Below, in pieces: positions 1,488-30,986 of a DNA stretch of 37,587 bases. The notes beneath the pieces are model-generated. The model ran no database searches, had not been told where the DNA came from, and saw nothing but the letters and a program-made list of their open reading frames with translations. This DNA is from Gammaproteobacteria bacterium (GTDB lineage: Bacteria > Pseudomonadota > Gammaproteobacteria > Steroidobacterales > Steroidobacteraceae): assembly GCA_003137095.1 (NCBI GenBank), contig PLET01000048.1:52886-90472 (forward strand), read 5' to 3'. A program made the position numbers and the translations under genes. How positions within the stretch are numbered: position 1 is the first letter of the stretch; the number at the start of each line of letters is the position of its first letter.

Positions 1488-3608
1488 ATGAGCGAGCATC
1501 AGACAGTGCGCGTGGATCTGGACGACGGGATTGTCGTCCTGACGATCGACAATCCTCCGGTCAACACCATCACGGCCGCCCTGCGCGAGGGATTGTCCGC
1601 GGCCCTGGATCGGCTGGCGACGCTGTCCGGCGTGCGTGCCGTTCTACTGCGCTGCGAGGGCAGCACGTTCTGTTCCGGCGCCGACATCGGCGAGTTCAGC
1701 GGTCCGCCGAAGGAGGCCGAGTACCGCGCGCTGTTCGCGCGCATCGAGACGCTGAAGGTGCCGGTGGTGGCGGCCATGCACGGCACGGTGCTGGGCGGCG
1801 GTCTCGAGCTCGCGCTCGCCTGCCACTACCGCGTGGCCGTGCCGGGCACCCGCCTCGGGCTGCCCGAGGTGACCCTGGGGATCATCCCCGGAGCGGGCGG
1901 CACCCAGCGCATGCCGCGGCTGATCGGCGTGGAGAAGACTCTGGACCTGATCATCAATGCCAAGCCGGTGGATGCGACCGAGGCCCACCAGCTCGGCTTC
2001 CTGGACGAGGTGATCGAGGGCGACCTGAAAACCGGTGCACTCGCCTATGCGCGCCGGCTGCTCGCCGCCGGCGCCGCGCCGCGGCCCACGGCCGCGCGCA
2101 GCGTCGATCCGGCCACGGCCACCGATGCGGCGATCGAGCGGCTCACCGCGCTCGCCCGCAAGCTATACCCGAACCGACAGGCCGCACTGACCGCCATTCT
2201 GGCGGTGCGGGCATCGGCGCGCCTGCCTTTCGATCAGGGACTCCTGTACGAGAACGAACTCGTGAATCAGGCCAAGGACACGATCGAGAGCCGCGCGCTG
2301 GTGCACGTATTCTTCGCCGAGCGCGCCGCGCGCCGGATCGCCGGCCTGCCCGCGGGGGAGGGCCGGCCGGTGCGCAGCGGCGGCATCATCGGTGCAGGAA
2401 CCATGGGCGGCGGCATCGCGATGTGCTTCGCCAATGCCGGGCTGCCCGTGACGGTGATCGACTCCACGCAGGACGCTCTGGACCGCGGCCTGGGTGTGAT
2501 CGAAAAAAACTATGCCTCGATGGTCAAGCGCGGACGGCTCACGGCCGGGGAACAGGCCAAGCGCATGGCGCTGATCCGCGGCTCGCTCGATTATGCGGAC
2601 CTGGCGGCAGCCGATGTGATCATCGAGGCCGTGTACGAGAACATGGACCTCAAGAAGGCGATCTTCGCGAAGCTCGACAAGGTGGCCAAGCCCGGTGCGC
2701 TGCTCGCCAGCAACACCTCCACCCTCGATGTGGCGGAGATCGCGCGCGCCACCACGCGTCCGGCCGACGTGGTCGGGCTGCATTTCTTCTCCCCGGCCAA
2801 CGTCATGCCGCTGCTCGAGGTCATCCGCACGGACGCATCGGGACCGGCGGCGATTCGCACGGCGATGGACCTGACGAAGCCGCTGCGCAAGACTCCGGTG
2901 CTGGCGCGCGTATGCTATGGCTTTGTCGGCAACCGCATGATGGAGGGTTACGCGCGCGAGGCGGAGTTCATGGTGCTCGAAGGCGCGACGCCGAAGCAGG
3001 TGGACGATGCGCTCGAGCGTTTCGGCATGGCGATGGGAATTCTGGCGGTGTTCGACATGGCCGGCGTCGACGTCGGCGTCAACGTCCACAAGGCCAATGC
3101 ACAGCACTACCCGCCGGATCCGAAGTATTACCAGGCGGAGATCGCCCTGGTGGAGGCCGGACGTCTCGGCCAGAAGAACGGCAAGGGCTATTACCGCTAC
3201 GAGAAGGGTGATCGCGCCCGCCTCGAGGATCCGGAGGCCATTGCGATCCTCAAGGCGCGGGCACAGCAACTCAAGATGCCGACCCATGCGCACACCGAGC
3301 AGGAGATATTGGACCGCTGCCTGTTTCCGCTGCTCAACGAGGGTTTCCGGATCCTGGAGGAGGGTGTGGTGCAGCGGGCGAGCGACATCGACGTGGTGTG
3401 GACCTCGGGCTACGGCTTCCCGCGCTACCGCGGCGGGCCCATGTTCTATGCCGAGTCGATCGGCCTGAAGACCCTGCTCGACGGCATGCTGCGATTCCGG
3501 GCGCAATTCGGGCCGATGCACTGGGAACCGGCGCAGCTTCTGGTGGAACTGGTGCGCAAGGGATCGAGCCTCTCCGAGTGGGAGAAAACCAAGGGAGCCA
3601 CGCCATGA
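1488..3608 (+). CDS. Fused enoyl-CoA hydratase/3-hydroxyacyl-CoA dehydrogenase (FadB/FadJ-like), copy 1
   Basis: A 706-residue bifunctional protein of the FadB/FadJ layout. The N-terminal crotonase domain (about 1-190) has the oxyanion-hole region [12 protein letters not shown] and both hydratase glutamates, E107 and E127 (GLPEV). The dehydrogenase half has the NAD fold GAGTMGGG from residue 302, the catalytic-His segment LHFFSPA and GFVGNR, then two C-terminal HACD domains. It hydrates an enoyl-CoA and oxidises the 3-hydroxyacyl-CoA to 3-oxoacyl-CoA. The ATG at 1488 has a GGAGGC ribosome site; an in-frame ATG at 1395 would add a non-homologous 31-residue tail and is less likely. It overlaps the next start as ATGA. 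With the amidohydrolase and CoA ligase behind it, beta-oxidation of a phenylpropenoyl-CoA is the likely role (inference). Confidence 0.93.
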
Positions 3609-4477
3609 AGACCGATCAACTCGTCGCCATCGACATCCACGTGCACGCCGAGGTGTCGTGCTGTCAGCCGGTCGATCCGATCTGGCAGACATTCGAGGAT
3701 GCGGCCAGCAAATACTTCAAGGTCGGCAAGCGGCCGACCATCGCCGAGACCGTGGCCTATTACCGCGAGCGCAAGATCGGCCTGGTAATGTTCACGGTGG
3801 ACATGGAGGCCGAGACGGGCGCGAAGCGGATCCCGAACCAGGAGGTCATCGATGCGGCGCGCGAGAACAGCGACATGATGATGGCCTTCGCCAGCGTCGA
3901 TCCGCACAAGGGCAAATTCGGTGCGCTGGAGGCGCGCCGTCTGATCGAAGAGCAGGGCGTGAGCGGCTTCAAGTTCCATCCGAGCTTGCAGGGCTTCTTT
4001 CCGAACGACCGCATGGCCTACCGGATCTACGAGGTCATCGCCGAGCACAAGCTGCCGGCCATCTTCCACAGTGGTCATTCCGGCATCGGCACCGGCATGC
4101 GCGGCGGCGGCGGCGTCCGGCTGAAGTATTCCAACCCTATGCATCTGGACGATGTCGCCGCAGACTTTCCGGACATGACCATCATCATCGCGCACCCCTC
4201 CTGGCCCTGGCAGGACGAGGCGCTGTCGGTATGCCTGCACAAGCCCAATGTCTACATCGACCTGTCCGGTTGGTCGCCGAAGTACTTCCCGCCTCAGCTG
4301 GTGCAATACGCCAACAGCCAGCTCAAGCACAAAATGCTGTTCGGCTCCGATTACCCGGTGCTCGCCCCGGATCGCTGGATCAAGGATTTCGCGGAGGCCG
4401 GTTTCAAGCCCGAGGTGCATGAGCTCATTCTCAAGAAAAACGCCATCAAGGTCCTGAAGCTCGACGCGAAGGCCTGA
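3605..4477 (+). CDS. Amidohydrolase-family metal hydrolase, candidate aryl-beta-ketoacyl-CoA hydrolase (CouO/PhdC-like)
   Basis: A 290-residue amidohydrolase_2-type TIM barrel. Visible metal and active-site motifs are the N-terminal DIHVHAE (HxH on strand 1), GFKFHPS, IFHSGH, IIAHPSWPW and the C-terminal GSDYPV aspartate. The family holds decarboxylases and hydrolases, so the motif set alone does not fix the reaction. Context does more: it is coupled by ATGA to a hydratase/dehydrogenase and followed 4 bp later by a feruloyl-CoA-synthase-type ligase, with no thiolase in the operon. From memory, Rhodococcus CouO and Corynebacterium PhdC are amidohydrolase-family enzymes that split 4-hydroxyphenyl-beta-ketoacyl-CoA into hydroxybenzoate and acetyl-CoA in the same gene company. 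I infer that role here. A ring-carboxylate decarboxylase is the main alternative. Confidence 0.75.
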   Translation: MKTDQLVAIDIHVHAEVSCCQPVDPIWQTFEDAASKYFKVGKRPTIAETVAYYRERKIGLVMFTVDMEAETGAKRIPNQEVIDAARENSDMMMAFASVDPHKGKFGALEARRLIEEQGVSGFKFHPSLQGFFPNDRMAYRIYEVIAEHKLPAIFHSGHSGIGTGMRGGGGVRLKYSNPMHLDDVAADFPDMTIIIAHPSWPWQDEALSVCLHKPNVYIDLSGWSPKYFPPQLVQYANSQLKHKMLFGSDYPVLAPDRWIKDFAEAGFKPEVHELILKKNAIKVLKLDAKA

Positions 4478-4481
4478 ACCC

Positions 4482-6314
4482 ATGGGCGGGGAGCTCGACT
4501 GGCAGCCCGGCGATTTCTCCACCGACGCGGTGTGGCGCGAGGATGGCTCCCTGCTGCTGACGCCGCGCTGCGCACTCGCGCCATCCCCGGCGCGGCTTAC
4601 GGACACCCTGTTGCATTGGGCGGCCGCCGCCCCCGACAGGACCATGGTGGCGCAGCGCGATGCGCGCGGCGAGTGGCGGCACGTGAGCTATGGCGAGGCG
4701 CTCGCCAGGGTGCGGCGGCTGGCCGCCGGCCTCACCCGGCTCGAGCTCTCCGCCGAGCGTCCGCTGCTCATCCTGTCGGGCAACGGCATAGAACATCTGC
4801 TGCTCGGCCTCGCCGCCATGTACATCGGCGTGCCTTTCTGCCCGGTCTCCCCCGCCTATTCACAGGCGAGTTCCGACCTCGGCAAGCTGCGCGAGGTGGT
4901 CGAACTGCTCACGCCGGGCGCGGTCGCGGCCTTTGGCGCGGGCCCGTTCGTCCGCGCCATCGGCAGGACGGTGTCCGATGCGGTGCTCATCGGCGATGTC
5001 CTCGAGATTCCCGGGCGCACCGTCCGCTCGCCCGAGGATCTGCAGGCCGCCGACCCGGCCTTGGCGGAGCCGGCGCACGCGAGGACCGGACCCGACACCA
5101 TCGCCAAGTTCCTGCTGACCTCCGGTTCCACCGGCAGCCCCAAGGCCGTGGTCACCACCCACCGCATGCTCTGCACCAATCAGATCATGCTGCACCACGC
5201 GTTTCCCTTCCTCAAGACCGAGCCGCCGGTACTCATCGACTGGCTGCCGTGGAATCATGTGTTCGGCGGCAATCACAACGTGGGATTGTCGCTGCTCAAT
5301 GGCGGCTCGCTGTACATCGATGAGGGCCGCCCCACGCCCGCGGGCTTCGAGACCACTCTGCGCAATCTGCGGGAGATCGCGCCGACCCTGTACTTCAACG
5401 TGCCGAGCGGGTTCGAAATGCTGGCGCGGCATCTGCAGCATGATCCAGCGCTGCGCGATTTCTTCTACAGCCGGCTGCGGGCCTGTTTCTATGCCGGCGC
5501 CGGCCTGTCGCAGCCCGCCTGGGACGCACTGGAATCGCTGTCGCTGGCGGCACGCGGGCGCCGGGTGCCCATCTTGTCCGGTCTCGGGGTGACGGAGACT
5601 TCGCCGTCCATCACATTCACCACTCCGGATGCGAACCAGGCCGGCATCATCGGGTTGCCCGGACCGGGCAATCTGGTCAAGCTCACGCCGGTCGCCGGCA
5701 AGCTGGAAATGCGCGTCAAGGGGCCGAACGTGATGCCGGGCTATTGGCGCCAACCGGACTTGACCGCGAAGGCCTTCGACGAGGAGGGCTTTTACCGCCT
5801 GGGAGACGCGGTGCGCCTGATCGATCCGGAGCATCCGCAGAAAGGATTGATCTTCGACGGCCGCATTGCCGAGGATTTCAAGCTGGCCACCGGAACCTGG
5901 GTGAGCGTCGGTCCGCTGCGCGCCTCGCTGCTGGCGGCGCTCTCGCCGCTGGCCTATGACGTAGTCATTGCGGGTTTGAACCGCGATTTCGTCGGACTGC
6001 TCATCTTTCCGCATCTGCTCGCCTGCGCGGCCTTCCTCGGCCGGACCCAGGCGGCAGATGCTGCGGCATTGGCGGTCGATCCGCGGCTGATCCGCGAACT
6101 CACCGAGAGGCTCAAGGCGCATGCGAAGGCGCATCCGGCGAGCTCAACGCGGGTCGAGCGGGCCGTGCTGCTCGCGACACCCCCGCTGTTGGACCGCGGC
6201 GAGATCACGGACAAGGGATCGATCAATCAGCGGGCCGTGCTTAAGCTGCGTGCGCCATTGGTCGAGGATCTGTTCCAGGACGAACCGCCACCACACGTCA
6301 TCCTCGTGCGCTGA
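4482..6314 (+). CDS. Feruloyl-CoA-synthase-type aryl-CoA ligase, copy 1
   Basis: A 610-residue adenylate-forming enzyme. The P-loop [10 protein letters not shown] is at about 213-222, followed by the family block [14 protein letters not shown], then [20 protein letters not shown] and [11 protein letters not shown]. The end carries [14 protein letters not shown], typical of bacterial Fcs, instead of the common PKTxTGK motif. It activates a carboxylic acid to its CoA thioester through an acyl-AMP. Last gene of the operon begun at 1488. It is clearly paralogous to the ligase at 29118-30986, sharing the DWLPW, GGNHN, IAPTxYFNVP and EDFKL blocks. Family and context favour a (hydroxy)cinnamic acid substrate; which ring isomer cannot be read from sequence. 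Confidence 0.9.
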
Positions 6315-6326
6315 ACGGGCCGCTCA

Positions 6327-6344: not shown

Positions 6345-6824
6345 TTATGCGCGCCGCAATTGTCGCAGCGGCGCGCGACTCATCTCGTTGTTTTCGGTGG
6401 CCACCTTGGCCAACAGCCGTATGAACAGCTGCCGCTCCGCGGCGTCGAGCGGCTCGAGCAGACGACGCTGCACCTCGTTGACCGCGGTTTCGAGCTCACG
6501 AAGCCGCTCCCGGCCGGCCGGCGTCACCGACAACAGATTGATCCGCCGATCGCCGGTCTTGCCGGAGCGCAGCACCAGGCCGGCGGCCTCGAGCCGGTCG
6601 ATGACGTCGCCGGCGGTGGAGCGGTTCAGCGCCGCCAGGCCGGCGAGCGTGATCTGGTCGATGGCCTCATGCCGTGAGATCACCGAGAGCGCCGCGTATT
6701 GCACCGGCGTCAGATTACCGGGGCATTCCTCGTGAAACAGCGCCACCGCGATCTGATGGCAGCGCCTGATGAGGTGCGCCGGAATCAGATGGATGTCATC
6801 CATGTCGGTGGATCCGCCGCTCAA
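6345..6824 (-). CDS. MarR-family regulator of the 3-hydroxybenzoate/gentisate operon
   Basis: A 159-residue winged-helix protein: helix-turn-helix region LTPVQYAALS...ITLAGLAALNRSTAGDVIDRLEAAGLV, then the wing motif GKTGDRRINLLSVTPAG with the MarR D-x-R signature, and a C-terminal dimerisation helix. The TTG at 6824 has AAGGGG 6 nt upstream; the ATG at 6803 (residue 8) lacks so good a site, so I keep 6824. It is divergent from the gentisate operon across a 150-bp gap containing a 22-bp inverted repeat, and convergent with the ligase gene. Inference: a repressor released by 3-hydroxybenzoate, gentisate or an aryl-CoA (CouR, a MarR protein of hydroxycinnamate pathways, responds to a CoA thioester). 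Confidence 0.88.
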   Translation of the reverse strand: MSGGSTDMDDIHLIPAHLIRRCHQIAVALFHEECPGNLTPVQYAALSVISRHEAIDQITLAGLAALNRSTAGDVIDRLEAAGLVLRSGKTGDRRINLLSVTPAGRERLRELETAVNEVQRRLLEPLDAAERQLFIRLLAKVATENNEMSRAPLRQLRRA

Positions 6825-6976: not shown

Positions 6977-8176
6977 GTGAGTCCATCCAGGGCACTGCCG
7001 GTGGTGGTCGCCGGCGGCGGCATCGGCGGCATTGCCGCAGCCTTGGCGCTGCGCGTTGCCGGCCACCCGGTCATGGTGCTGGAGAAATCCGCCCAATTCG
7101 GCGAAATCGGCGCCGGCATCCAGCTCGGTCCCAATGCCTTCCACGCACTGAAGACCCTGGGCGTGGCGGATGAGGCGCTCGCGAACGCGGTGTACATCGA
7201 CCGGCTGGTGATGATGGATGGCGTGAGCGGTGACGAGATCGCGGCCATCCCCGTGGATGAGCCGTTTCGGCGCTGGTTCAAGAATCCGTATGCCGTCATC
7301 CACCGCGCCGACCTGCACGCCTCGCTGCTCGGGCGCTGCCGGAGCGACGCCGGCGTGCAGTTGCTCGCGAATCACGAAGTGGCCGGATTCACCCAGCAGG
7401 CGGGCGGGGTCGAGGTGCGCACCGTTTCGGGCGAGACTTTTCAAGCCGCCGCGCTGATCGGCGCCGACGGCATCCGCTCCCGGGTGCGCGAGTCCCTCAT
7501 CGGCGACGGTGCACCGCGGATCAGCGGGCATGTCTGTTATCGAGCAGTGTTGCCGATCGAGCAGATGCCCGAATCCTTGCAGCTGAATGCCGCCGTGCTG
7601 TGGGCGGGGCCGAAGACGCACTTCGTGCACTATCCTCTGCGGGGCTGGAAGCTGTTCAACATCGTCGCCACCTTCCACAGCACGAAGGACACCGCCGAGC
7701 AGCTGAATGCGCCGGGCAGCGTGGAGGAACTGATGAGCCACTTCGGCCATCTGCCGCCGGTGCCGCGTTCGGTGCTGGAGCGCTCCGAGGGCTGGCGGCG
7801 CTGGGTGCTCGGGGATCGTGACCCGGTGGCCAATTGGACCCACGGCCCGGTGACCCTGCTCGGCGATGCCGCGCATCCGACGCTGCAATATTTCGCCCAA
7901 GGCGCCTGCATGGCGCTCGAGGATGCCGTCTGTCTTCTCGATGAGCTCAAGCGACGGCCGGAGGATTTCGCCGGCGCGTTCCTGAGCTACCAGACCAAGC
8001 GCATCACCCGCACCGCCCGCATCGTGCTGTCCTCGCGCGCCATCGGGCAATATTTCTATCATCCCGAAGGCGTGGAGAGGCTGGTGCGAAACCAGATGCT
8101 CGGCGAGAAGACGCCGGAGGATTTCTACCGCAGCTTGGACTGGATTTACGGCTACGGCCGGGACCACGCGGCCTGA
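6977..8176 (+). CDS. 3-hydroxybenzoate 6-hydroxylase (FAD monooxygenase)
   Basis: A 399-residue class A flavoprotein monooxygenase. The Rossmann motif GGGIGG is at residues 13-18 with the acidic ribose-binding residue in VLEK. It also has the DG motif (GADGIRSRV) and the second FAD motif GDAAHP at 296-301, followed by YFAQGACMALEDA. The length and the FGEIGAGIQLGPNA segment match the salicylate/3-hydroxybenzoate hydroxylase branch. Next come isomerase, gentisate dioxygenase and fumarylpyruvate hydrolase genes, which argues strongly for 3-hydroxybenzoate to gentisate conversion with NADH and O2. The start is GTG at 6977 behind a GGGGGA ribosome site. A salicylate 5-hydroxylase role is unlikely since those are Rieske systems. 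Promoter and operator lie just upstream. Confidence 0.88.
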   Translation: MSPSRALPVVVAGGGIGGIAAALALRVAGHPVMVLEKSAQFGEIGAGIQLGPNAFHALKTLGVADEALANAVYIDRLVMMDGVSGDEIAAIPVDEPFRRWFKNPYAVIHRADLHASLLGRCRSDAGVQLLANHEVAGFTQQAGGVEVRTVSGETFQAAALIGADGIRSRVRESLIGDGAPRISGHVCYRAVLPIEQMPESLQLNAAVLWAGPKTHFVHYPLRGWKLFNIVATFHSTKDTAEQLNAPGSVEELMSHFGHLPPVPRSVLERSEGWRRWVLGDRDPVANWTHGPVTLLGDAAHPTLQYFAQGACMALEDAVCLLDELKRRPEDFAGAFLSYQTKRITRTARIVLSSRAIGQYFYHPEGVERLVRNQMLGEKTPEDFYRSLDWIYGYGRDHAA

Positions 8177-8184: not shown

Positions 8185-8823
8185 ATGAAGCTGTACGGCT
8201 ATTTCCGATCCTCGGCGGCTTATCGGGTGAGGATTGCGCTCAACCTGAAGGGACTCGCGGCGGATCAGACCTTCATCCATCTGCGCCGCGGCGAGCAGCA
8301 GCAGGGTGCCTACCGCCGGATCAATCCGGACGGGTTGCTGCCGACGCTGGAATACGAGGGAAGTTTCCACTCCCAATCGCTCGCCATCATCGAGTATCTC
8401 GATGAGATCAAGCCGCAGCCGCCGCTGCTGCCGGCCTCCGCTGCGGACCGGGCGCATGTCCGCGCCATCGCCCTGTCCATCGCCTGCGACATCCACCCGC
8501 TCAACAATCTGCGGGTGCTGAAGTATCTCAAGAGCGATCTGGGCCATGATCAGGCGGCGGTGGACGCCTGGTACGCACACTGGATCGCAGTGGGTCTGGC
8601 CGGCCTCGAGGAGCGCGTCGCGCGCGACGCACGCACCGGCACGTATTGCCTCGGCGAAGCACCGGGACTGGCGGAGGTGTGCCTCGTGCCCCAGATCCAC
8701 AATGCCGAACGTATGAAATGCGACCTTGCGCCCTATCCCGTGCTGCGGCGTATCGCGGCGGCGGCACGGGCGCTGCCGGCGTTCGAGGCGGCGGCGCCGG
8801 AACGCCAGCCCGACGCCGAGTGA
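8185..8823 (+). CDS. nagL: Glutathione-dependent maleylpyruvate isomerase (zeta-class GST)
   Basis: A 212-residue zeta-class glutathione transferase. The N-terminal thioredoxin-like domain has the signature YFRSSAAYRVRIALNLKG (glutathione-activating serines), the cis-proline region GLLPTLE and the S-L-A-I-I-E-Y-L glutathione-contact motif. A helical C-terminal domain follows. Sequence alone does not separate maleylacetoacetate from maleylpyruvate isomerases. Lying between 3-hydroxybenzoate hydroxylase and gentisate dioxygenase, it should isomerise maleylpyruvate to fumarylpyruvate after ring cleavage, as NagL does in Ralstonia. It starts 8 bp after the hydroxylase stop; an 84-bp gap without visible features follows. 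Confidence 0.87.
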   Translation: MKLYGYFRSSAAYRVRIALNLKGLAADQTFIHLRRGEQQQGAYRRINPDGLLPTLEYEGSFHSQSLAIIEYLDEIKPQPPLLPASAADRAHVRAIALSIACDIHPLNNLRVLKYLKSDLGHDQAAVDAWYAHWIAVGLAGLEERVARDARTGTYCLGEAPGLAEVCLVPQIHNAERMKCDLAPYPVLRRIAAAARALPAFEAAAPERQPDAE

Positions 8824-8907: not shown

Positions 8908-9966
8908 ATGAGTTCCAGTCTCGGCCGGCTTGAAGATCTGCCGCCGCAGTATGTGAGCGGCCTGCGCGAGCGCAATGTCGTTCCGCTGTGGCCGTCGTTG
9001 CGCGATGCGTTGCCCTACGACAAGCCGGGCCGCAAGACCCAGCCCAGCCTGTGGCGCTATTCGCAGCTGCGGCCGGAGCTGATGCGCGCCGGCCTATTGG
9101 CGCCGATCGAGACGGCCGAGCGCCGCGTGCTGGTATTGTGCAATCCGGGTCTCGGCCTCGACACCCTGCGCGCCACGCCGACGATCTACGTCGGGCTGCA
9201 GCTGATACTGCCCGGGGAGGTCGCGCCCACCCACCGGCATACGCCGTGCGCCGTACGTTTCGTCATCGAGGGCGACGGCGGCTATACCACCGTCGGCGGC
9301 GAGAAGCTGCCCATGGTGAAGGGCGATTTGATCCTTACGCCCTCATGGCTGTGGCACGAGCACGGGCACGAGGGCAACGCGCCCGTGGTTTGGCTCGATG
9401 CGCTGGATCTGCCGCTCATTCATGGGATGGAGGCTTCCTACAGCGTCGAAGGACGGGCGCAACCGCTGACGGATCCGCTGAACGGCTCGCGGCTGCGATA
9501 CGCCCAGGGCGGTGTGGTTCCCTATGCGTCGCTCACCCCCCCGCGCGCCGCCTATCCGCTGATGCGCTATCCCTGGGCCGCGGTCAAGGCGACCCTCGAG
9601 GGCCTGGCGGGCGTCACGCCCCGCGGCGAGCCCGTACACGTTGCCTATGTGAATCCGGAAACCGGCGCCGAATGCCTGCCGACCCTGGGTTTCTCGGCCC
9701 TGCGTCTCATGCCGCGCGAGCCGGTGGTGCTGCCGCGCCGCTCGGCATCCGCGGTGCTGCATGTGGTGGAAGGCGAAGGCAGCGCGGTGATCGATTCAAC
9801 CGGCTTTTCCTTTTCCGAATCCGACACCATCGCGGTGCCGACGCATGCCGGCGTACGGCTCGAGGCAGCCGGCTCTGCGCCGACCTATGTGTTCATGGTC
9901 GATGACGCGCCGTTGCAGCGCAAGATCGGGATTTACCAGATTCTGGAACCAGGAGACGCGCGATGA
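8908..9966 (+). CDS. nagI: Gentisate 1,2-dioxygenase
   Basis: A 352-residue bicupin. The N-terminal cupin holds the iron ligands H109 and H111 (THRHTP) and H150 (LWHEH), with the [15 protein letters not shown] block typical of gentisate dioxygenases. A second cupin-like domain occupies about residues 240-345 ([16 protein letters not shown]) and has lost most metal residues, as is usual. It opens the gentisate ring between C1 and C2 with O2 to give maleylpyruvate. The ATG at 8908 has an AAGGAG ribosome site 8 bp upstream. The stop overlaps the next start as ATGA, implying coupled translation with fumarylpyruvate hydrolase. Confidence 0.93.
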
Positions 9967-10652
9967 GCCGATATCTTTTTGATCCGACCCCGGTCCCGGC
10001 CGTGCCGGTGCGCGGCATCGCGCAGCTGTATCCGATCCGCCGCATCTTCTGCGTCGGCCGCAATTACGAGGCGCATGCCCGGGAAATGGGCGTCATCGCC
10101 GATCGCGAAGCGCCGTTTTATTTCACCAAGACACCGCTCGACTATGTGCCGACGGGCGCGACCCTCAGCTATCCGCCGGGCACGTCGAACTATCATTACG
10201 AGATGGAGCTCGTGGTTGCGATCGGCGCGCCGGCATTCCGGGTGAGCGCCGCCGATGCACCGGCCAGCATCTATGGTTACGCCTGCGGCCTCGACATGAC
10301 GCGCCGCGACCTGCAGCTGGCGGCGCGCGACAAGGGCCGCCCCTGGGATCTCGGCAAGGACTTCGACCAGGCTGCGGTGCTTGCGCCCCTGGTGCGCGCC
10401 GGCGAGGTGGGGGAGATGACGCACGGCAAGATCGAGTTGAAGGTGAATGGCGTGGTCAAGCAGTCCTCGGATCTCAACCTGCTGATCCACCCGGTGGCCG
10501 CGATCATCGCCGACCTGTCGAAGTACTATCATCTGCAACCGGGCGATCTCATCTACACCGGCACGCCGGAAGGCGTCGGGCCGGTGAAAAGCGGTGATCG
10601 GCTCGAGGGTTCGATCGACGGTTTGGCGGGCATTGCCGCCGCCATCGCCTGA
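9963..10652 (+). CDS. nagK: Fumarylpyruvate hydrolase (FAH family)
   Basis: A 229-residue small FAH-fold enzyme. The metal ligands are E80 and E82 in HYEMELV and D111 in CGLDMTRRD. The [16 protein letters not shown] start and [11 protein letters not shown] block are standard for acylpyruvate hydrolases, and the length fits NagK-type proteins (the larger FAH enzyme at 33129 has 282 residues). It would split fumarylpyruvate into fumarate and pyruvate, ending the gentisate pathway. ATGA overlap with the dioxygenase gene; last gene of the operon before a 79-bp gap. Confidence 0.9.
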
Positions 10653-11193: not shown

Positions 11194-11196
11194 CCC

Positions 11197-17843: not shown

Positions 17844-18629
17844 TCACGCCGCGTGCAGCGCCGCGATGAACTCGCGGCTGGCGGTGAGCACCGCGACGGG
17901 CTGATCGCGATGCGGTGAATGGCGGCAGTCCTCGAGCACCTGCACGGCGGTACCCGGTACGGCGCGGCGCAGAATCTCGAGCTGTGCGAGGGTGCCGTAC
18001 TCGTCGTCTCGCCCCTGGATGGCCAGCACCGGGCAGCGCACGGCGCCGAGCAACGCTTCGATGTTCCAGCCGCGGAAGGCCGGGTGCAGCCAGATATCGT
18101 TCCATCCGCGGAAGGTGCTTTCGACATCCCGATGGTGGCGGGCAAGCCGCTTTCGCAGATCCGTGGTGCGGAACGCGTCGCGGGCCTGCTCGATGGCCGC
18201 CACCGTCAGATCCTCGACCATCACATGCGGCGCCAGCAGAATCAGGCCCGACAACTCCGCCCCCGGCAGGGCGGCGTGGATCAGCGCGATCGAGGCGCCG
18301 TCGCTGTGGCCGAACAATACCGGCCGCCGGACGCCCAGCTGCCGCAGGATCTGCGGCAGCCAAACCCGTGCCTCCTCGTGCATGTAGTCCGCGTTGCGCG
18401 GCGCCGTCAGCAGCGACGAGCCTCCGTAACCATGGCGGGAATAGATCAGCACCCGGCAGCCCGTGGCGGCGGCCAGCCGCTCGGGGAAATCCCTCCACAG
18501 GGACATCGATCCCAAGCCCTCGTGCAACATCACGAGATCCGGAGCGCCGCGATTCGCAGCCGCAATCCAGCGATATTCGATGCGGCGATCCGCCAGCGTG
18601 AGCAGCGAGGATTCCGTCAGCCGACTCAG
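17844..18629 (-). CDS. Alpha/beta hydrolase of the benzoate operon
   Basis: A 261-residue alpha/beta hydrolase: oxyanion region HEGLGS (36-41), nucleophile elbow GHSDGAS with S109, acid D208 (GRDDEYG) and catalytic His H237 or H240 (CRHSPH). No ATG, GTG or TTG lies between an ATG at 18725, about 100 bp inside the ligase gene, and the LVMLHEGLG strand. The first beta strand (RRIEYRW) must be translated, so the best-placed start is CTG at 18629, with GAGGAG 5 nt upstream and overlapping the ligase TGA as CTGA. Homologous hydrolases recur in box clusters with no settled role; a thioesterase or lactone hydrolase acting on a pathway by-product is possible. Confidence 0.8.
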   Translation of the reverse strand: MSRLTESSLLTLADRRIEYRWIAAANRGAPDLVMLHEGLGSMSLWRDFPERLAAATGCRVLIYSRHGYGGSSLLTAPRNADYMHEEARVWLPQILRQLGVRRPVLFGHSDGASIALIHAALPGAELSGLILLAPHVMVEDLTVAAIEQARDAFRTTDLRKRLARHHRDVESTFRGWNDIWLHPAFRGWNIEALLGAVRCPVLAIQGRDDEYGTLAQLEILRRAVPGTAVQVLEDCRHSPHRDQPVAVLTASREFIAALHAA

Positions 18630-20739: not shown

Positions 20740-20755
20740 TGCGCAGTATAGTGCA
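20740..20755 (-). promoter_or_regulatory. BoxR-like operator/-10 region of the bclA operon
   Basis: On the minus strand the site reads TGCACTATACTGCG: TGCA, six bases, then a near-TGCA half. It is an inverted near-copy of the site at 20829-20842. The hexamer TATACT inside it (20750-20745 on the minus strand) is a good -10 candidate for the operon starting at 20716. No matching -35 is evident at 17 bp. Occupancy would cover the -10. BzdR/BoxR proteins are known to bind TGCA-rich operators. Confidence 0.6.
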
Positions 20756-20828
20756 TCACCTTGCGGGCGCGAAGTAAACAGCAATGCGAATACGCCTCGC
20801 TTGACTCGCGAGATTCGATGGTCGAAAC

Positions 20829-20842
20829 TGCACTATATTGCA
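20829..20842 (+). promoter_or_regulatory. BoxR-like operator/-10 region of the boxCBA operon
   Basis: Seen: TGCA (20829-20832), CTATAT, TGCA (20839-20842), two half-sites spaced by six bases. TATATT (20834-20839) inside the site is a candidate -10 for the boxC transcript; TTGACT at 20801 is too far (27 bp) to be its -35, so activation or a weak -35 would be needed. Together with the facing copy at 20740-20755 it makes a symmetrical divergent control region. Confidence 0.65.
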
Positions 20843-20887: not shown

Positions 20888-22573
20888 ATGGCCGATCCAA
20901 TGACCGCCGAACCCGCCACAGAGACCCCCGTGCCGGTCGATTTCGAGACCCATCCGTCCCGCTACCGGCATTGGCGGCTGTCGTTCGCGGGACGCGTGGC
21001 CACCCTGACCATGGATATCGACGAGGCGGCCGGCATCCGCCCGGGCTACCGGTTGAAGCTCAATTCCTATGACCTCGGGGTCGACATCGAGCTGCATGAC
21101 GCCCTGCAGCGCATCCGCTTCGAGCATCCGGAGGTTGCCACCGTGGTGCTGACCAGCGGCAAGGATCGGATCTTCTGCTCAGGCGCCAATATCTTCATGC
21201 TCGGACTCTCCAGTCACGCGTGGAAGGTGAACTTCTGCAAATTCACCAACGAGACGCGCAACGGCATCGAGGACTCGAGCGCCCATTCGGGACTGAAGTT
21301 TCTCGCCGCCTGCAACGGCACCACCGCGGGCGGCGGCTATGAGCTGGCGCTCGCCTGCGATGAGATCGTGCTCATCGATGATCGCTCCTCGGCCGTGAGC
21401 CTGCCCGAGGTTCCGCTGCTCGGGGTGCTGCCGGGAACCGGCGGCCTGACCCGGCTCACGGACAAGCGCAGGGTGCGCCGCGATCTCGCCGACATTTTCT
21501 GCACCACCGTCGAAGGCGTGCGGGGCCAGCGGGCCCGCGACTGGCGGCTCATCGATGCGCTGGCCAAGCCGCAGGCCTTCGCCGGCTACGTCGAACAGCG
21601 TGCGCTCGCGCTGGCGGCGGCCAGCGACCGGCCGGCCGGCGCCAACGGCGTGCCGCTGCCGCCCCTGGTGCGCAAGGCCAGAACCGATGGCTTTGGCTAC
21701 GCCCATGTGGACGTGAAGCTGGATGCGGGCCGGCGCATCGTGGAGCTCACGGTGGCCGCACCCGAGGATCCGGGCCCGGCGAGCATCGACGACATCCTCA
21801 AGGCCGGCGCGAACTGGTGGCCGCTCAAGATGGCACGCGAACTCGATGATGCCATCCTGAATTTGCGCACCAATCACCTCGACTTCGGGCTCTGGGTGCT
21901 CAAGACCCGCGGCGATGCCGGCCATGTGCTCGCCGCCGAGCGGCAGATGCTCGCCCATCGCGGCCACTGGTTCGTGCGCGAGTGTCTGGGCCAGCTGCGC
22001 CGCACGCTCGCGCGGCTCGACGTGTCCTCACGTTCGATGTTCGCCCTGGTCGAACCCGGCAGCTGTTTCGCCGGCATGTTGCTCGAGATCGCGCTGGCGG
22101 CTGACCGCATTTACCTGTTGAATCAGCCGCCCGGCGAGGGTGGACCGGTGCTCACGCTGTCGGAGGTCAATTTCGGGCTGCTGCCCGCCGTTCACGGCCG
22201 CTCCCGGATCGATGCGCGATTCTACGGCGACGAACCGCAGATCGCGGCCGCCCGCGCCGCGATCGGCTCGCCGCTCGGCGCGGAATCGGCGGGCGCGCTG
22301 GGGCTGGTGACCGCGGCGCCCGATGTCCTCGACTGGCCCGACGAGATCCGCATGGCGCTCGAGGAGCGGGTGAGTTTGTCGCCCGATGCCCTCACGGGCC
22401 TGGAGGCGAACCTGCGCTTCGGGCCAGGCGAGAACCTGGATACCCGCATCTTCGGCCGGCTGTCGGCCTGGCAGAACTGGATTTTCATCCGGCCCAATGC
22501 GGTAGGCGAGTCGGGGGCGCTGAAGGTCTTCGGCACCGGCCGCAAGGCCAAATTCAACCGGGATCGCATCTAG
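20888..22573 (+). CDS. boxC: Benzoyl-CoA-dihydrodiol lyase BoxC
   Basis: A 561-residue double-crotonase protein, the right size for BoxC. The first crotonase core shows NGTTAGGGYELALACDE and SLPEVPLLGVLPGTGG; the second half contains LNQPPGEGGPVLTLSEVNFGLLP and FGTGRKAKFNRDRI, both typical of BoxC. The enzyme opens the epoxidised/hydrated ring of benzoyl-CoA to 3,4-dehydroadipyl-CoA semialdehyde and formate. The frame stays open far upstream on the plus strand over the bclA genes, but homology begins near VPVDFETHPSRYRHW, so ATG 20888 (or 20900) is the start. First gene of the boxCBA operon, 4 bp before boxB. Confidence 0.94.
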   Translation: MADPMTAEPATETPVPVDFETHPSRYRHWRLSFAGRVATLTMDIDEAAGIRPGYRLKLNSYDLGVDIELHDALQRIRFEHPEVATVVLTSGKDRIFCSGANIFMLGLSSHAWKVNFCKFTNETRNGIEDSSAHSGLKFLAACNGTTAGGGYELALACDEIVLIDDRSSAVSLPEVPLLGVLPGTGGLTRLTDKRRVRRDLADIFCTTVEGVRGQRARDWRLIDALAKPQAFAGYVEQRALALAAASDRPAGANGVPLPPLVRKARTDGFGYAHVDVKLDAGRRIVELTVAAPEDPGPASIDDILKAGANWWPLKMARELDDAILNLRTNHLDFGLWVLKTRGDAGHVLAAERQMLAHRGHWFVRECLGQLRRTLARLDVSSRSMFALVEPGSCFAGMLLEIALAADRIYLLNQPPGEGGPVLTLSEVNFGLLPAVHGRSRIDARFYGDEPQIAAARAAIGSPLGAESAGALGLVTAAPDVLDWPDEIRMALEERVSLSPDALTGLEANLRFGPGENLDTRIFGRLSAWQNWIFIRPNAVGESGALKVFGTGRKAKFNRDRI

Positions 22574-22576: not shown

Positions 22577-24010
<1,434 letters not shown>

Positions 24011-24022: not shown

Positions 24023-25237
24023 GTGAGCGCCACGCTCGCCCGACAGCACGTGATCGATCCGGAGGTGTGCATCCGCTGCAACACCTGCGAGTCGACCTGC
24101 CCGCAGAAAGCGGTGACCCACGATGAGCGCAATTACGTGGTGCATTTCGATCTTTGCAATGCCTGCGGAGCGTGTATCTCGCCCTGTCCCACCGGCGCCA
24201 TCGATCACTGGCGGCAGGTGCCGAGCGCCGCGCCCTACAGCATCGCGGAACAATTGAGCTGGGATTCGCTGCCGGAGCAGGCCGCGCTCGCGGTCCACGA
24301 CGGCGGTGGAATGCCGCCGGAAGTGCTCGCCGCGACGCAAGCGGCGAGTGCCGGCCAGGGCGGAGCCGTGAGTGCCCCCTGGTCGGCGCAAACCCCGCAG
24401 GTGAATCTGTACCCGGTGGCTGCTCCGGCGATCGCGCGGGTGGCCGGGAACCTGCGTCTCACCGACGCCGATGCCAGCTGCGACATCCGCCACATCGTGC
24501 TCGACTTCGGTGCCACCGCCATGCCGGTGCTGGAGGGGCAGTCGATCGGAATCCTGCCCCCGGGCGCGAACGCCGATCACCGCCCGCATTACATCCGTTT
24601 GTATTCGATCGCGAGCCCGCGCGACGGCGAGCGGCCGAATTACAACAACCTGTCGATCACGGTCAAGCGCGTGACCGAGGATCACGCCGGCAAGCCGACT
24701 CTCGGCGTGTGCTCGAATTATCTGTGCGATCTGAAGGCGGGCGATGAGGTCAGGGTGGTCGGACCCTATGGCTCGACTTTTCTAATGCCCAACCATCCGG
24801 GTGCCAATCTCCTGATGATCTGCACCGGCACGGGCTCGGCGCCCATGCGCGCCATGACCGAGCGGCGCCGGCGCCGCCGCGCCCTGAAGGAGCCGGGCGA
24901 AACCATGCTGTTCTTCGGGGCGCGCGCGCCGGGCGAGTTGCCGTATTTCGGCCCGCTCATGAAGCTGCCGAAGGAATTCATCGACGTGAATCTGGCACTC
25001 TCGCGCATGCCCGGCGAATCGCGGCGCTACGTGCAGGATCGGATCCGCGAACGCGGCCCGGATGTGGCGCGGTTGCTGGCGCATGCGGAGACCTACGTCT
25101 ACATCTGCGGGCTCAAGGGCATGGAACTCGGCGTGGATGCGGCCTTCGACGAGGTCTGCCGCGAACACGGCATGGATTGGCGGGAATTGCTGGCGCGCCT
25201 GCGTCAGGGCGGCCGCTTTCACGTGGAGACCTATTGA
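24023..25237 (+). CDS. boxA: Benzoyl-CoA 2,3-epoxidase, reductase subunit BoxA
   Basis: A 404-residue iron-sulfur flavoprotein. The N terminus has two [4Fe-4S] ferredoxin motifs, C16-x2-C19-x2-C22-x3-C26 and C45-x2-C48-x2-C51-x3-C55. A ferredoxin-NADP reductase-type module follows, with FAD contact RLYSIASP and nucleotide-binding [12 protein letters not shown]. It carries electrons from NADPH to BoxB. The start is GTG at 24023. The stop overlaps the start of the MaoC-like gene by one base (TGATG), so the two are translationally linked. Confidence 0.95.
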
Positions 25238-25689
25238 TGCAGTTTCAAGACTTGCACGCGGGACTGGTCATCGAGGCCGGTCCGCGCCCGGTCACGGAGG
25301 CGGAGATTCTCGAGTTCGCCACGCGCTACGATCCGCAATGGTTCCACATCGACCGGGAAAGGGCCGCCAAGGGGCGCTGGAAGGGCCTCATCGCGAGCGG
25401 CTGGCAAACCGGGGCCATCTGCATGGAACTGATGGTCAAGAACGTCCTGCAGGATTCCAGCTCCTTCGGTTCACCGGGAATGGACGCCATCCGGTGGCTC
25501 GAACCCGTGCGCCCGGGCGATGCGTTGAGCTTGAAATGCCGGGTGCTCGAATGCAGCGTGTCCGCCTCGGGCGGCACGGGCGTCGTGCGGTGGACCTGGC
25601 AGCTGTGGAACCAGGCGGCTGTGCAGGTGTTCGAGATGACGGGCACCAGTCTGTTCGCGCTGAAGGACAGGCCTCCGCCGGGCGCCTGA
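25237..25689 (+). CDS. MaoC-like (R)-hydratase-fold protein
   Basis: A 150-residue single hotdog-fold protein of the MaoC dehydratase family. The segment DPQWFHIDRERAAKGRWKGLIASGWQTGAI holds the aspartate and histidine of the hydratase-2 active site and the conserved GLIASGW turn. Such proteins add water to enoyl-CoA thioesters or act as thioesterases. Placed between boxA and the fused hydratase/dehydrogenase, it may hydrate a dehydroadipyl-CoA or cinnamoyl-CoA intermediate, or spare the crotonase domain of its neighbour. TGATG overlap with boxA. Confidence 0.87.
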   Translation: MQFQDLHAGLVIEAGPRPVTEAEILEFATRYDPQWFHIDRERAAKGRWKGLIASGWQTGAICMELMVKNVLQDSSSFGSPGMDAIRWLEPVRPGDALSLKCRVLECSVSASGGTGVVRWTWQLWNQAAVQVFEMTGTSLFALKDRPPPGA

Positions 25690-29112: not shown

Positions 29113-29117
29113 GCACC

Positions 29118-30986
29118 GTGGAGCGGGATCCCAGCAAGCTGTTTGCGCCGCCGGCGGTGATCGTGGAACGGCATGCCGACGGCAGCATGCGCCTGCGATC
29201 GCCGCAGCCGCTAAAGAGCGGCGCGCGCTGCGTCGGGGATTGGCTGATTGAGTGGGCGTCGCATGCGCCGGACCGGCTGTTCCTCGCCGAACGCGGCCCG
29301 GACGGGCGGTGGCGCGGCCCCACCTACGCCGAGGCGTACGAGGCGGTGGTGAGGATCGGCAGCTGGCTGCTCGGCCTGGGGCCATCCGGCAGGCGTCCGC
29401 TGCTGATGCTGCCGGACAACAGCGTCGACGCGAGCCTGCTCACCCTGGCGGCCATGCACGTCGGCATTCCCGCCGTTCCCGTGTCGCCCGCCTATTCCTT
29501 GATGTCGAATGATTTCGGCAAGCTCAAGGCCATCGTGCGCACGCGGAATCCCGGTGTGATGTACGTCGCCGATGCGCCGCGGTTTGCCGCGGCGCTGGCC
29601 GCCATCGAGGATCTGCACACGGCCGTCGTCATCGCCGCATCGGGCCATGAGCAGGTCCGCGGTGTGCGTCCTTGGGCCGAGCTTCTGGCGACACGCGATG
29701 AGAGCGCCGTGGCGCGCGCCTTCGCCGCCATCGGAGCCGACACCGTGGCAAAACTGCTGTTCACCTCCGGATCCACCGGCACGCCCAAGGGGGTGGTCAA
29801 CACACAGCGCATGCTGTGTGCCAATCAGCAGCAGCTGCTGCAGATCTGGCCGTTCTCCGCGTACTCACCGCCCGTGGTCGTCGACTGGCTGCCCTGGAGC
29901 CACACCTTCGGCGGGAATCACAATTTCAATTTCGTGCTGCGCGCCGGCGGAACCCTGTACATCGATGCCGGCCGGCCCGTCGCCGGACTCATCGAGCGCA
30001 CGGTCGCGAATCTCAAGGAGATTGCGCCGACGATTTACTTCAATGTGCCGCGCGGCTACGACCTGTTGGTCGGCGCGTTGCGCGCCGATGCCGATCTGCG
30101 GCAGCGCTTCTTCAGCCGGCTGCAGCTCATGTTTTATGCGGCCGCGGCACTTCCAGAGCACCTGTGGGAGGCGCTCGAGCAGCTGGCGCTGGAGGCGACC
30201 GGCGGCCCGATCGTCCTGGTGTCCTCCTGGGGTTCCACCGAGACGGCGCCTCTGGCCACCGCCTGCCATTTTCGCGCCGCGCGTGCGGGCAACATCGGAT
30301 TGCCCGTACCGGGTTGCGAACTCAAGCTGGTGCCCGGCGCTGACAAGCTGGAGGTCCGCGTGCGTGGTCCCCAGGTCATGCCGGGCTACTGGAACGAGCC
30401 GATGTTGAGCGCCCAAGCCTTCGACGAGGAAGGGTTCTACCGCATCGGCGATAGGGTGCGTTTCGTCGATGAACGGCATCCGCAGGGCGGCCTTTATTTC
30501 GACGGCCGCATCGCGGAGGATTTCAAACTCACCACCGGAACCTGGGTCAATGTGGGCGGATTGCGCGTCAAGGCATTGGCGGCATTGGCGCCGCTGGTGC
30601 AGGACCTGGTGGTGGCCGGACACGGGCGTGATCACGTGGCGTTTCTGATGTTCCCGCATCTCGCGAATTGCCGGCGGCTCTGCGGCGAGTCGGCCGCCGC
30701 CGCCACGGCCGCACAGATCCTCGCGAGCGAGGCGGTGACCGGGCCGGTGCGCGCCGGGCTCGAGAGACTACGACGCGAGGGGGTGGGCTCGTCGACCCAT
30801 GCCAGCCGGGCTCTGTTCCTCGAGGAGCCGCCCTCGCTCGACGCCGGCGAGATCACCGACAAGGGCTACATCAATCAACGCGCGGTGCTCGAACGTCGCG
30901 CCGCCGCCGTCGAAGCGCTGTACGGCGATCCGCCGCCTCCCGAGGTGTTGGAGCTGCGGAACGACCCTGACTCGAGCAATCGGTGA
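29118..30986 (+). CDS. Feruloyl-CoA-synthase-type aryl-CoA ligase, copy 2
   Basis: A 622-residue paralogue of the ligase at 4482-6314: P-loop FTSGSTGTPKG at about 215-225, [64 protein letters not shown] and the Fcs-type ending EITDKGYINQRAVLE. The GTG at 29118 is chosen because upstream in-frame sequence overlaps the thiolase in a frame that does not look coding. A CTG (29109) also overlaps the thiolase stop. It would activate a phenylpropenoic acid, feeding the hydratase/dehydrogenase and thiolase before it. Last gene of the boxCBA operon, followed by an AT-rich promoter region. Confidence 0.9.
   Translation: MERDPSKLFAPPAVIVERHADGSMRLRSPQPLKSGARCVGDWLIEWASHAPDRLFLAERGPDGRWRGPTYAEAYEAVVRIGSWLLGLGPSGRRPLLMLPDNSVDASLLTLAAMHVGIPAVPVSPAYSLMSNDFGKLKAIVRTRNPGVMYVADAPRFAAALAAIEDLHTAVVIAASGHEQVRGVRPWAELLATRDESAVARAFAAIGADTVAKLLFTSGSTGTPKGVVNTQRMLCANQQQLLQIWPFSAYSPPVVVDWLPWSHTFGGNHNFNFVLRAGGTLYIDAGRPVAGLIERTVANLKEIAPTIYFNVPRGYDLLVGALRADADLRQRFFSRLQLMFYAAAALPEHLWEALEQLALEATGGPIVLVSSWGSTETAPLATACHFRAARAGNIGLPVPGCELKLVPGADKLEVRVRGPQVMPGYWNEPMLSAQAFDEEGFYRIGDRVRFVDERHPQGGLYFDGRIAEDFKLTTGTWVNVGGLRVKALAALAPLVQDLVVAGHGRDHVAFLMFPHLANCRRLCGESAAAATAAQILASEAVTGPVRAGLERLRREGVGSSTHASRALFLEEPPSLDAGEITDKGYINQRAVLERRAAAVEALYGDPPPPEVLELRNDPDSSNR

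What the first reader, a model, noticed from the sequence alone, without database searches (positions are those of the whole stretch)
1488..30986. Two paralogous phenylpropanoid side-chain modules with different exits
The pair hydratase/dehydrogenase plus feruloyl-CoA-synthase-type ligase occurs twice (1488-6314 and 25693-30986). In copy 1 the gene between them is an amidohydrolase; in copy 2 it is a thiolase. I infer that copy 1 releases a free hydroxybenzoate by hydrolysis and copy 2 releases an aryl-CoA by thiolysis. The flanking ring pathways match: copy 1 is followed by a 3-hydroxybenzoate/gentisate operon, copy 2 is in the boxCBA operon that consumes benzoyl-CoA. The thiolytic exit would save one ATP by skipping benzoate-CoA ligase. 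I know of no described organism with both exits side by side, but cannot search.
Basis: partly seen in the sequence, partly recalled or inferred. Interest (0 to 1): 0.75.

Follow-up and report, generated by a model that had tools for sequence, protein, structure and literature searches.

The report
Two cinnamate modules, two different exits
One stretch of a bacterial genome carries two related enzyme sets for shortening plant cinnamic acids, one predicted to release a free acid and the other to pass on an already CoA-activated ring, which suggests that bacteria can exchange the last step to suit the next pathway.

Summary
Copy 1 (1488-6314): fused hydratase/dehydrogenase, Amidohydro_2 protein, feruloyl-CoA-synthase-type ligase. 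Copy 2 (25693-30986): fused protein, thiolase, ligase, directly behind boxCBA. Both exits are supported by inference. The amidohydrolase is 60% identical to a Rhizobium protein annotated 4-hydroxyphenyl-beta-ketoacyl-CoA hydrolase, the step known from CouO. The thiolase keeps its catalytic residues, and its clade recurs beside three gene sets that would each lead to benzoylacetyl-CoA. The copies are not in-genome duplicates: each ligase has closer kin elsewhere. The 3-hydroxycinnamate/gentisate assignment of copy 1 is weakened: in a 148-genome sample the amidohydrolase travels with pobA (27 of 32 with it, 12 of 116 without), and the 3-hydroxybenzoate hydroxylase appeared only in this genome of 22 searched. 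So 4-hydroxycinnamate to 4-hydroxybenzoate is likelier. Two relatives carry copy 1 with a thiolase and an ADP-forming acyl-CoA synthetase nearby instead of the amidohydrolase, an apparent exit swap. In two genome samples (148 and 321) both exits, amidohydrolase at 60% identity or more, were found together only here. No activity has been tested.

The parts
662..1351 (-). TetR-family regulator, divergent from copy 1
   Evidence: PF00440; 63-76% homologues beside the fused gene in L071, L072, L092
1488..3608 (+). [quoted passage not shown]
   Evidence: PF00378, PF02737, PF00725; 78% identical to L092 in the same genus
3605..4477 (+). Copy 1 exit: amidohydrolase-superfamily aroylacetyl-CoA hydrolase (predicted)
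   Evidence: PF04909; 60% to REQ54_04472 annotated 4-hydroxyphenyl-beta-ketoacyl-CoA hydrolase; H12, H14, H155, H197, D249 conserved in at least 39 of 40 rows
4482..6314 (+). Copy 1 aryl-acrylate CoA ligase (feruloyl-CoA-synthase type)
   Evidence: PF00501; NF009232 704 bits, under cutoff 777; tree
6345..6824 (-). MarR regulator between copy 1 and the gentisate operon
   Evidence: PF01047; perfect 10-nt inverted repeat 6904-6925 in the gap before the hydroxylase gene
6977..8176 (+). 3-hydroxybenzoate 6-monooxygenase
   Evidence: NF006021 equivalog 546 bits, cutoff 459
8185..8823 (+). Maleylacetoacetate/maleylpyruvate isomerase
   Evidence: TIGR01262 277 bits, cutoff 171
8908..9966 (+). Gentisate 1,2-dioxygenase-like cupin
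   Evidence: PF07883; TIGR02272 265 bits, under cutoff 442
9963..10652 (+). Fumarylpyruvate hydrolase-like FAH protein
   Evidence: PF01557; NCBIfam matches all under cutoff
16939..17823 (-). BoxR-type regulator (HTH + shikimate-kinase-like)
   Evidence: NF006015 348 bits, cutoff 204
18626..20236 (-). Benzoate-CoA ligase
   Evidence: TIGR02262 763 bits, cutoff 375
20743..20842 (.). Possible operators between the divergent benzoate and box units: 13-nt inverted arms 20743-20755 / 20829-20841, with TGCA-N6-TGCA at 20829-20842
   Evidence: the TGCA motif alone is expected 0.81 times per window, so weak; its link to BzdR/BoxR is recalled
20900..22573 (+). BoxC
   Evidence: TIGR03222 910 bits, cutoff 712
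22577..24010 (+). BoxB
   Evidence: TIGR03225 892 bits, cutoff 499
24023..25237 (+). BoxA
   Evidence: TIGR03224 653 bits, cutoff 459
25237..25689 (+). MaoC-like hot-dog protein between boxA and copy 2; role unassigned
   Evidence: PF01575 58 bits
25693..27825 (+). [quoted passage not shown]
   Evidence: PF00378, PF02737, PF00725; best PDB match 6ium, 624 bits
27907..29112 (+). Copy 2 exit: thiolase, predicted 3-oxo-3-arylpropanoyl-CoA thiolase
   Evidence: PF00108, PF02803; C90, N324, H355, C385 invariant in the 21 aligned sequences; thiolase fold, TM 0.73-0.80 (query-normalised) in the 50 listed matches
29118..30986 (+). Copy 2 aryl-acrylate CoA ligase (feruloyl-CoA-synthase type)
   Evidence: PF00501; NF009232 771 bits, under cutoff 777; tree
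36242..37585 (+). Tannase/feruloyl-esterase-family protein, running off the window
   Evidence: PF07519 279 bits; 28-33% homologues beside copy-1-type modules in L068 and L070

Best explanation
Two CoA-dependent, beta-oxidation-like side-chain modules of different ancestry lie on one contig and end differently. In copy 1 a ligase activates a hydroxycinnamate, the fused protein hydrates and oxidises it, and an amidohydrolase-superfamily enzyme cleaves the 3-oxo-3-arylpropanoyl-CoA with water to a free hydroxybenzoate and acetyl-CoA. The likeliest product is 4-hydroxybenzoate for PobA, encoded elsewhere in this genome; 3-hydroxybenzoate for the neighbouring gentisate operon remains possible. In copy 2 the same chemistry on cinnamate ends with CoA-dependent thiolysis to benzoyl-CoA and acetyl-CoA, and benzoyl-CoA enters BoxCBA, encoded in the same gene run and probably controlled by the BoxR-type regulator. 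Shown: gene content, order, families, catalytic residues, trees, co-occurrence with pobA and boxB. Inferred: substrates, exits, regulation and the saved activation step.
For: Families and residues. The amidohydrolase is 57-62% identical to proteins beside feruloyl-CoA-synthase and enoyl-CoA-hydratase genes on four named plasmids; the Rhizobium gene sets match the ferulate region described for Agrobacterium fabrum (PMC7797058, passages), and CouO is the published precedent (PMC4737184, passages). The fused gene or the ligase, at the limits used, lies near the amidohydrolase in 19 of 35 outside loci. pobA: 27 of 32 amidohydrolase genomes against 12 of 116 others; by genus 15 of 16 against 4 of 32; in G079 pobA lies 3.6 kb from the amidohydrolase. 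Thiolase clade: 38 outside loci, two of them the same contig, so 37: hydantoinase-type carboxylase genes nearby in 8, phenylalanine aminomutase-like plus class III aminotransferase genes in 7, a ligase of this type or a fused protein without these in 8. Each set would lead to benzoylacetyl-CoA. boxB in 6 of 9 thiolase genomes against 9 of 312 others. Copy 2 continues the box genes with gaps of 81 bases or less.
Against: No activity was measured. 16 of 35 amidohydrolase loci show neither fused gene nor ligase at the limits used (one of these has a partial fused gene at a contig edge). boxB is also enriched in amidohydrolase genomes (3 of 5 in the class sample), so that link partly marks aromatic degraders in general. 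Co-occurrence tests are not corrected for kinship; five amidohydrolase genomes lack pobA. For the copy 2 fused protein only one relative in 148 genomes passed E 1e-190, at 51%. The copy 2 ligase's nearest kin, L063 and L064, have no thiolase beside them, though L064 has the box genes and both genomes have a clade thiolase on another contig. 7 of 37 thiolase loci show none of the partner genes at the limits used.
Confidence: 0.66

Rival explanations
1. One reading: copy 1 is specific for 3-hydroxycinnamate and feeds the adjacent 3-hydroxybenzoate/gentisate operon.
For: Adjacency; 3-hydroxybenzoate 6-monooxygenase over its cutoff. In relative L071 a copy-1-type module (with thiolase) lies beside gentisate-type genes and that genome has no pobA hit.
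Against: Separate unit with its own MarR and palindrome; hydroxylase found only in the window's genome of 22 searched; amidohydrolase tracks pobA; the genome itself has pobA.
Confidence: 0.22
2. Copy 2 degrades benzoylacetate or phenylalkanoates, or is a general beta-oxidation set, rather than a cinnamate module.
For: The thiolase clade and ligases of this type pair with aminomutase-like and aminotransferase genes without a fused hydratase/dehydrogenase in L040, L044-L047, L128; the copy 2 fused protein resembles fatty-acid enzymes, best PDB hit 6ium.
Against: Here a fused hydratase/dehydrogenase lies inside the run, needed for cinnamate and not for benzoylacetate; none of the genes of the run is an acyl-CoA dehydrogenase; ligase 2 belongs with feruloyl-CoA-synthase-type ligases.
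Confidence: 0.2
3. Both modules are promiscuous and redundant; the exits do not sort the products.
For: The published piperine enzymes PipU-X accept piperic acid, two cinnamates and unsaturated fatty acids (PMC12753220, passages); sequence alone cannot give specificity.
Against: Different regulators nearby and different ligase clades; different exit enzymes kept in different relatives.
Confidence: 0.1
4. The copy 1 amidohydrolase is a decarboxylase or other Amidohydro_2 enzyme unrelated to the side-chain exit.
For: Pfam PF04909 also holds decarboxylases (recalled); one distant PDB relative, 3irs, uncharacterised; 16 of 35 loci lack the partner genes at the limits used.
Against: It overlaps the fused gene here; the pair recurs in 13 outside loci with a near-full-length fused gene; 57-60% identity to amidohydrolases in feruloyl-CoA-synthase clusters.
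Confidence: 0.08

Closest known systems
CouO step of Rhodococcus jostii RHA1 (PMC4737184, passages read)
   Same: CoA activation, beta-oxidative side-chain removal, last step by an amidohydrolase-superfamily enzyme giving a free aromatic acid
   Different: Published cluster is under a MarR repressor (CouR) and, as recalled, has separate hydratase and dehydrogenase; here a fused protein under a TetR. CouO's sequence was not in hand, so identity was not measured
Agrobacterium fabrum ferulate region, Atu1415-Atu1421 (PMC7797058, passages read); Rhizobium sp. Q54 plasmid cluster
   Same: Same four activities; the Q54 amidohydrolase is 60% identical
   Different: Unfused hydratase and dehydrogenase; the paper calls Atu1421 a beta-keto-thiolase although the product named is free vanillic acid. 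Atu1421 itself was not compared
phd cluster of Corynebacterium glutamicum (PMC5479773, passage read; original paper not read)
   Same: PhdC is described as a 3-oxoacyl-CoA ketohydrolase at the same step
   Different: No thiolytic twin in what was read
Phenylpropanoid and acetophenone routes of Aromatoleum aromaticum EbN1 (PMC9765128 and PMC4729919, passages read)
   Same: 3-(4-Hydroxyphenyl)propanoate is taken to benzoyl-CoA by a route that includes beta-oxidation, a precedent for a CoA-keeping exit; benzoylacetyl-CoA from acetophenone is cleaved to benzoyl-CoA and acetyl-CoA by a thiolase called 'so far unknown', with EbA2314 and EbA5319 as candidates
   Different: No hydrolytic twin in what was read; EbN1 sequences were not compared with this thiolase
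Box pathway (boxABC)
   Same: BoxA, BoxB, BoxC and benzoate-CoA ligase all over their NCBIfam cutoffs
   Different: A complete predicted cinnamate-to-benzoyl-CoA set is appended to the operon

Membership tests
Amidohydrolase-type beta-ketoacyl-CoA hydrolase (CouO/PhdC kind) | Amidohydro_2 family with metal ligands | tested here: met
   PF04909 163 bits; H12, H14, H155, H197, D249 conserved in at least 39 of 40 rows; their role as ligands is recalled
Amidohydrolase-type beta-ketoacyl-CoA hydrolase (CouO/PhdC kind) | Encoded with aryl-acrylate CoA ligase and hydratase/dehydrogenase | tested here: met
   Met in the window; in 19 of 35 outside loci one or both
Amidohydrolase-type beta-ketoacyl-CoA hydrolase (CouO/PhdC kind) | Hydrolyses 3-oxo-3-arylpropanoyl-CoA to free acid | not testable with these tools
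   Needs enzyme assay
Thiolase | Catalytic Cys, Asn, His, Cys | tested here: met
   C90, N324, H355, C385 by alignment to solved thiolases, invariant in 21 sequences; roles recalled
Thiolase | Thiolase fold | tested here: met
   Model pLDDT 75, pTM 0.81, with poor stretches at 120-147 and 209-227; TM 0.73-0.80 to thiolases in the 50 listed matches
3-oxo-3-arylpropanoyl-CoA thiolase | Activity on benzoylacetyl-CoA | not testable with these tools
   Only gene context
NF009232 / PRK12582 acyl-CoA synthetase | Score over curated cutoff 777 | tested here: not met
   704 and 771 bits; best family for both by hundreds of bits, but not filed as a strict member
Box pathway | BoxA, BoxB, BoxC over cutoff | tested here: met
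   TIGR03224, TIGR03225, TIGR03222
3-hydroxybenzoate/gentisate pathway | 3-hydroxybenzoate 6-monooxygenase equivalog | tested here: met
   NF006021 546 bits, cutoff 459
3-hydroxybenzoate/gentisate pathway | Gentisate 1,2-dioxygenase equivalog | tested here: not met
   TIGR02272 265 bits, cutoff 442; gentisate role inferred from context only

The most novel reading that the evidence does not exclude
The exit of phenylpropanoid side-chain oxidation is an exchangeable part with at least three forms: amidohydrolase (free acid), thiolase (aroyl-CoA into the box pathway), and thiolase plus an ADP-forming acyl-CoA synthetase that would release the free acid and regain ATP (L071, L072, perhaps L086). 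The EIPYGCYW-type thiolase clade is the missing benzoylacetyl-CoA thiolase, shared by cinnamate, beta-phenylalanine and acetophenone-type routes.
Probability: 0.35. Interest if true: 0.68.

Novelty: new variant of a known kind. Interest (0 to 1): 0.5.

Why it matters
Each exit has a precedent, but two in one 30-kb stretch, and relatives in which one appears to have replaced the other, make the choice between losing and keeping the CoA bond directly testable. The thiolase clade offers testable candidates for the benzoylacetyl-CoA thiolase that a 2016 paper calls 'so far unknown' (PMC4729919, passage), and for the fate of the keto acid from beta-phenylalanine, called uncertain in a 2018 paper (PMC6150868, passage). 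It would also give a sequence rule for predicting whether a bacterium makes a free benzoate or an aroyl-CoA from cinnamates.

Tried and rejected
Local duplication of one module into the other: rejected. Ligase 1 falls in a supported clade with L033 and L068-L073, ligase 2 with L063 and L064; fused protein 1 is 78% identical to L092, while the closest rows found for fused protein 2 are at 49-51%. The fused-protein tree has long branches and an unsettled bootstrap, so the place of fused protein 2 is unsure; the thiolase tree puts the window's thiolase in no starred group.

A strict rule 'thiolase goes with a CoA ring pathway': rejected, see L071 and L086. A link of the thiolase to pobA: none seen (4 of 8 against 34 of 139, p 0.2, own genome left out).

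A solved-structure search of ligase 2 at E up to 1e-20 gave only a malonyl-CoA ligase, 85 bits, so no pocket-based substrate prediction was tried. The amidohydrolase was not folded. Papers whose passages were seen but gave nothing for the argument: PMC13289028, PMC12125101, PMC13416013 (it only proposes thiolysis of 3-oxo-3-phenylpropanoyl-CoA in an anaerobic benzene degrader). Plant papers on cinnamate to benzoyl-CoA (such as PMC8195509, PMC8924275) were seen only as listing entries. PMC4018866 is not held.

Rows dropped: loci L001 and L114-L122 (short repeats of other loci), L002-L030 (4-kb previews), and hits under the script's identity and coverage limits. L052 and L087 are one contig (same length, identical thiolase), so thiolase loci are counted as 37, not 38. 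General CoA ligases (27-33% to the benzoate ligase) next to the thiolase were not counted as partners. L135 and L136 came later and are not among the 35 amidohydrolase loci. The 22 genomes are the window's own, the 18 relatives with the amidohydrolase at 76% or more, and G025, G064, G129; the other 13 amidohydrolase genomes of the 148 were not searched for the 3-hydroxybenzoate hydroxylase.


Full report
What is there. The window lies on one contig of a 4.7-Mb, 129-contig draft genome (92% complete, 4% contaminated). G+C is 65-70% in 2-kb steps, without a jump.

Copy 1. The fused protein, amidohydrolase and ligase overlap or lie 4 bases apart, with a divergent TetR gene 136 bases upstream. A homologous TetR gene lies beside the fused gene in three relatives: L092 (with the amidohydrolase), L071 and L072. 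The amidohydrolase is 60% identical to REQ54_04472 of a Rhizobium plasmid, annotated 4-hydroxyphenyl-beta-ketoacyl-CoA hydrolase, in a cluster with MarR, enoyl-CoA hydratase, feruloyl-CoA synthase and dehydrogenase genes, and 57% to one next to a feruloyl-CoA synthase in Phaeobacter. Published work assigns this step in Rhodococcus jostii to the amidohydrolase-superfamily enzyme CouO, which yields a free aromatic acid (PMC4737184, passages). The fused gene or the ligase lies near the amidohydrolase in 19 of 35 outside loci; 16 show neither at the limits used.

What copy 1 feeds. The 3-hydroxybenzoate/gentisate operon starts after a MarR gene on the other strand, with a perfect inverted repeat in the gap, so it looks like a separate unit. 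Twenty-two genomes were searched further: the window's own, the 18 relatives with the amidohydrolase at 76% identity or more, and three with thiolase clusters. The 3-hydroxybenzoate hydroxylase was found at E up to 1e-60 only in the window's genome; pobA was found in 19, among them 18 of the 19 with the amidohydrolase. In the 148-genome sample, 27 of 32 amidohydrolase genomes (E up to 1e-60) have pobA (E up to 1e-100) against 12 of 116 others; without the window's genome 26 of 31 against 12 of 116; by genus 15 of 16 against 4 of 32. Against it: five amidohydrolase genomes lack pobA (G023, G030, G108, G121, G131), genus g9 has the two genes in different genomes, one of the 39 pobA hits is under the family cutoff (G075), and kinship is not corrected for. 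In G079 pobA lies 3.6 kb from the amidohydrolase. I therefore favour 4-hydroxycinnamate to 4-hydroxybenzoate, with 3-hydroxycinnamate open.

Copy 2. boxC, boxB and boxA are over their NCBIfam cutoffs; a MaoC-like gene and copy 2 follow, with spacings from a 1-base overlap to 81 bases. A BoxR-type gene and a benzoate-CoA ligase gene lie nearby on the other strand. The divergent promoter region holds 13-nt inverted arms and one TGCA-N6-TGCA; the latter alone is at chance level for the window. The thiolase keeps Cys, Asn, His, Cys, and shares an invariant EIPYGCYW start with the 20 homologues aligned; the model has the thiolase fold.

The thiolase clade. One scan of named genomes gave 27 loci; more came from genome searches. 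Among 37 distinct loci outside the window that passed the limits: 8 have hydantoinase A/B-type carboxylase genes (7 of them also a CoA ligase-like gene; in L038, L041 and L043 the hydantoinase genes are only 31-37% identical to those of L050 and on the other strand); 7 have a phenylalanine aminomutase-like gene and a class III aminotransferase (6 of these with a feruloyl-CoA-synthase-type ligase); 8 others have such a ligase or the fused protein; 6 have the mutase and acyl-CoA dehydrogenase genes of the first kind but no hydantoinase match; 1 has gentisate-type genes with an ADP-forming synthetase; 7 have none of these. Acetophenone carboxylase makes benzoylacetate (abstract of PMC5214803 in the listing; that it is of the hydantoinase kind is recalled); transamination of beta-phenylalanine gives the corresponding keto acid (PMC6150868); cinnamate oxidation would give its CoA ester. 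The common point is benzoylacetyl-CoA. The aminomutase-like protein of L044 scores 713 bits against a cutoff of 800, so it could be an ammonia lyase instead. In the class sample boxB is present in 6 of 9 thiolase genomes and 9 of 312 others (without the window's genome 5 of 8), but also in 3 of 5 amidohydrolase genomes.

Ancestry and swap. In a 38-row ligase tree, ligase 1 sits in a starred set of 8 whose members are amidohydrolase-linked except L071 and L072. These two form a pair (99/97) inside a starred set of four with L069 and L073, and carry a divergent thiolase with an ADP-forming acyl-CoA synthetase nearby; their genomes (G025, G064) have no amidohydrolase match at E up to 1e-60 and no pobA match. 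Their congener G079 has the amidohydrolase and pobA. L071 also has gentisate-type genes; in L072 no gentisate dioxygenase match was seen in 20 kb. Ligase 2 groups with L063 and L064 (100/99), the latter beside box genes; neither has a thiolase beside it, though both genomes have a clade thiolase on another contig. So the modules are of different descent, and the exit appears exchangeable.

How unusual. Amidohydrolase at 60% identity or more together with the thiolase: only the window's genome in the 148-genome sample (G065 has the thiolase and weaker amidohydrolases at 44-49%), and only the window's genome in the 321-genome class sample. The two samples share at least four genomes, and many genomes are incomplete drafts.

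Identity of the organism was not given.

Noticed in passing
L040, L044, L045, L046, L047, L048, L128: Phenylalanine aminomutase-like MIO gene, class III aminotransferase and thiolase together, in all but L048 with a feruloyl-CoA-synthase-type ligase; in L044 boxB and boxC are nearby. Suggests phenylalanine to beta-phenylalanine to benzoylacetate to benzoyl-CoA.
   Followed up: partly
L036, L038, L039, L041-L043, L050, L052-L054, L061, L084, L085, L126: Same thiolase clade with methylmalonyl-CoA-mutase-like and acyl-CoA dehydrogenase genes, in many also molybdenum-hydroxylase and hydantoinase A/B genes: possibly an aromatic ketone or alkylbenzene cluster.
   Followed up: partly
L071, L072, L086: ADP-forming acyl-CoA synthetase (ATP-grasp_5 type) near the thiolase; in L071 and L086 also gentisate-type genes. 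It may regain ATP from aroyl-CoA, or may be an alternative activating ligase.
   Followed up: partly
window 31056-32117: ADH_N_2/ADH_zinc_N oxidoreductase 69 bases after ligase 2; possibly a double-bond reductase.
   Followed up: no
window 32176-36123: VOC-superfamily protein, FAH hydrolase, BKACE protein (NF053538 3,5-dioxohexanoate:acetyl-CoA acetone transferase, 486 bits over cutoff 430) and MFS transporter: a further ring-cleavage-like operon.
   Followed up: partly
window 20249-20716: PnbB-family (PF16155, 4-hydroxylaminobenzoate lyase) gene beside the benzoate-CoA ligase; no nitrobenzoate gene was looked for.
   Followed up: no
window 25237-25689: MaoC-like protein overlapping the end of boxA by one base; a FAS1-dehydratase-like and a MaoC-like gene precede the thiolase in L050, and genes of the same two clusters in L039, L053, L054, L056, L062.
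   Followed up: partly
window 10732-13392: Small and large subunit genes that look like a molybdenum hydroxylase, downstream of the gentisate operon (read from the sequence, not scanned).
   Followed up: no
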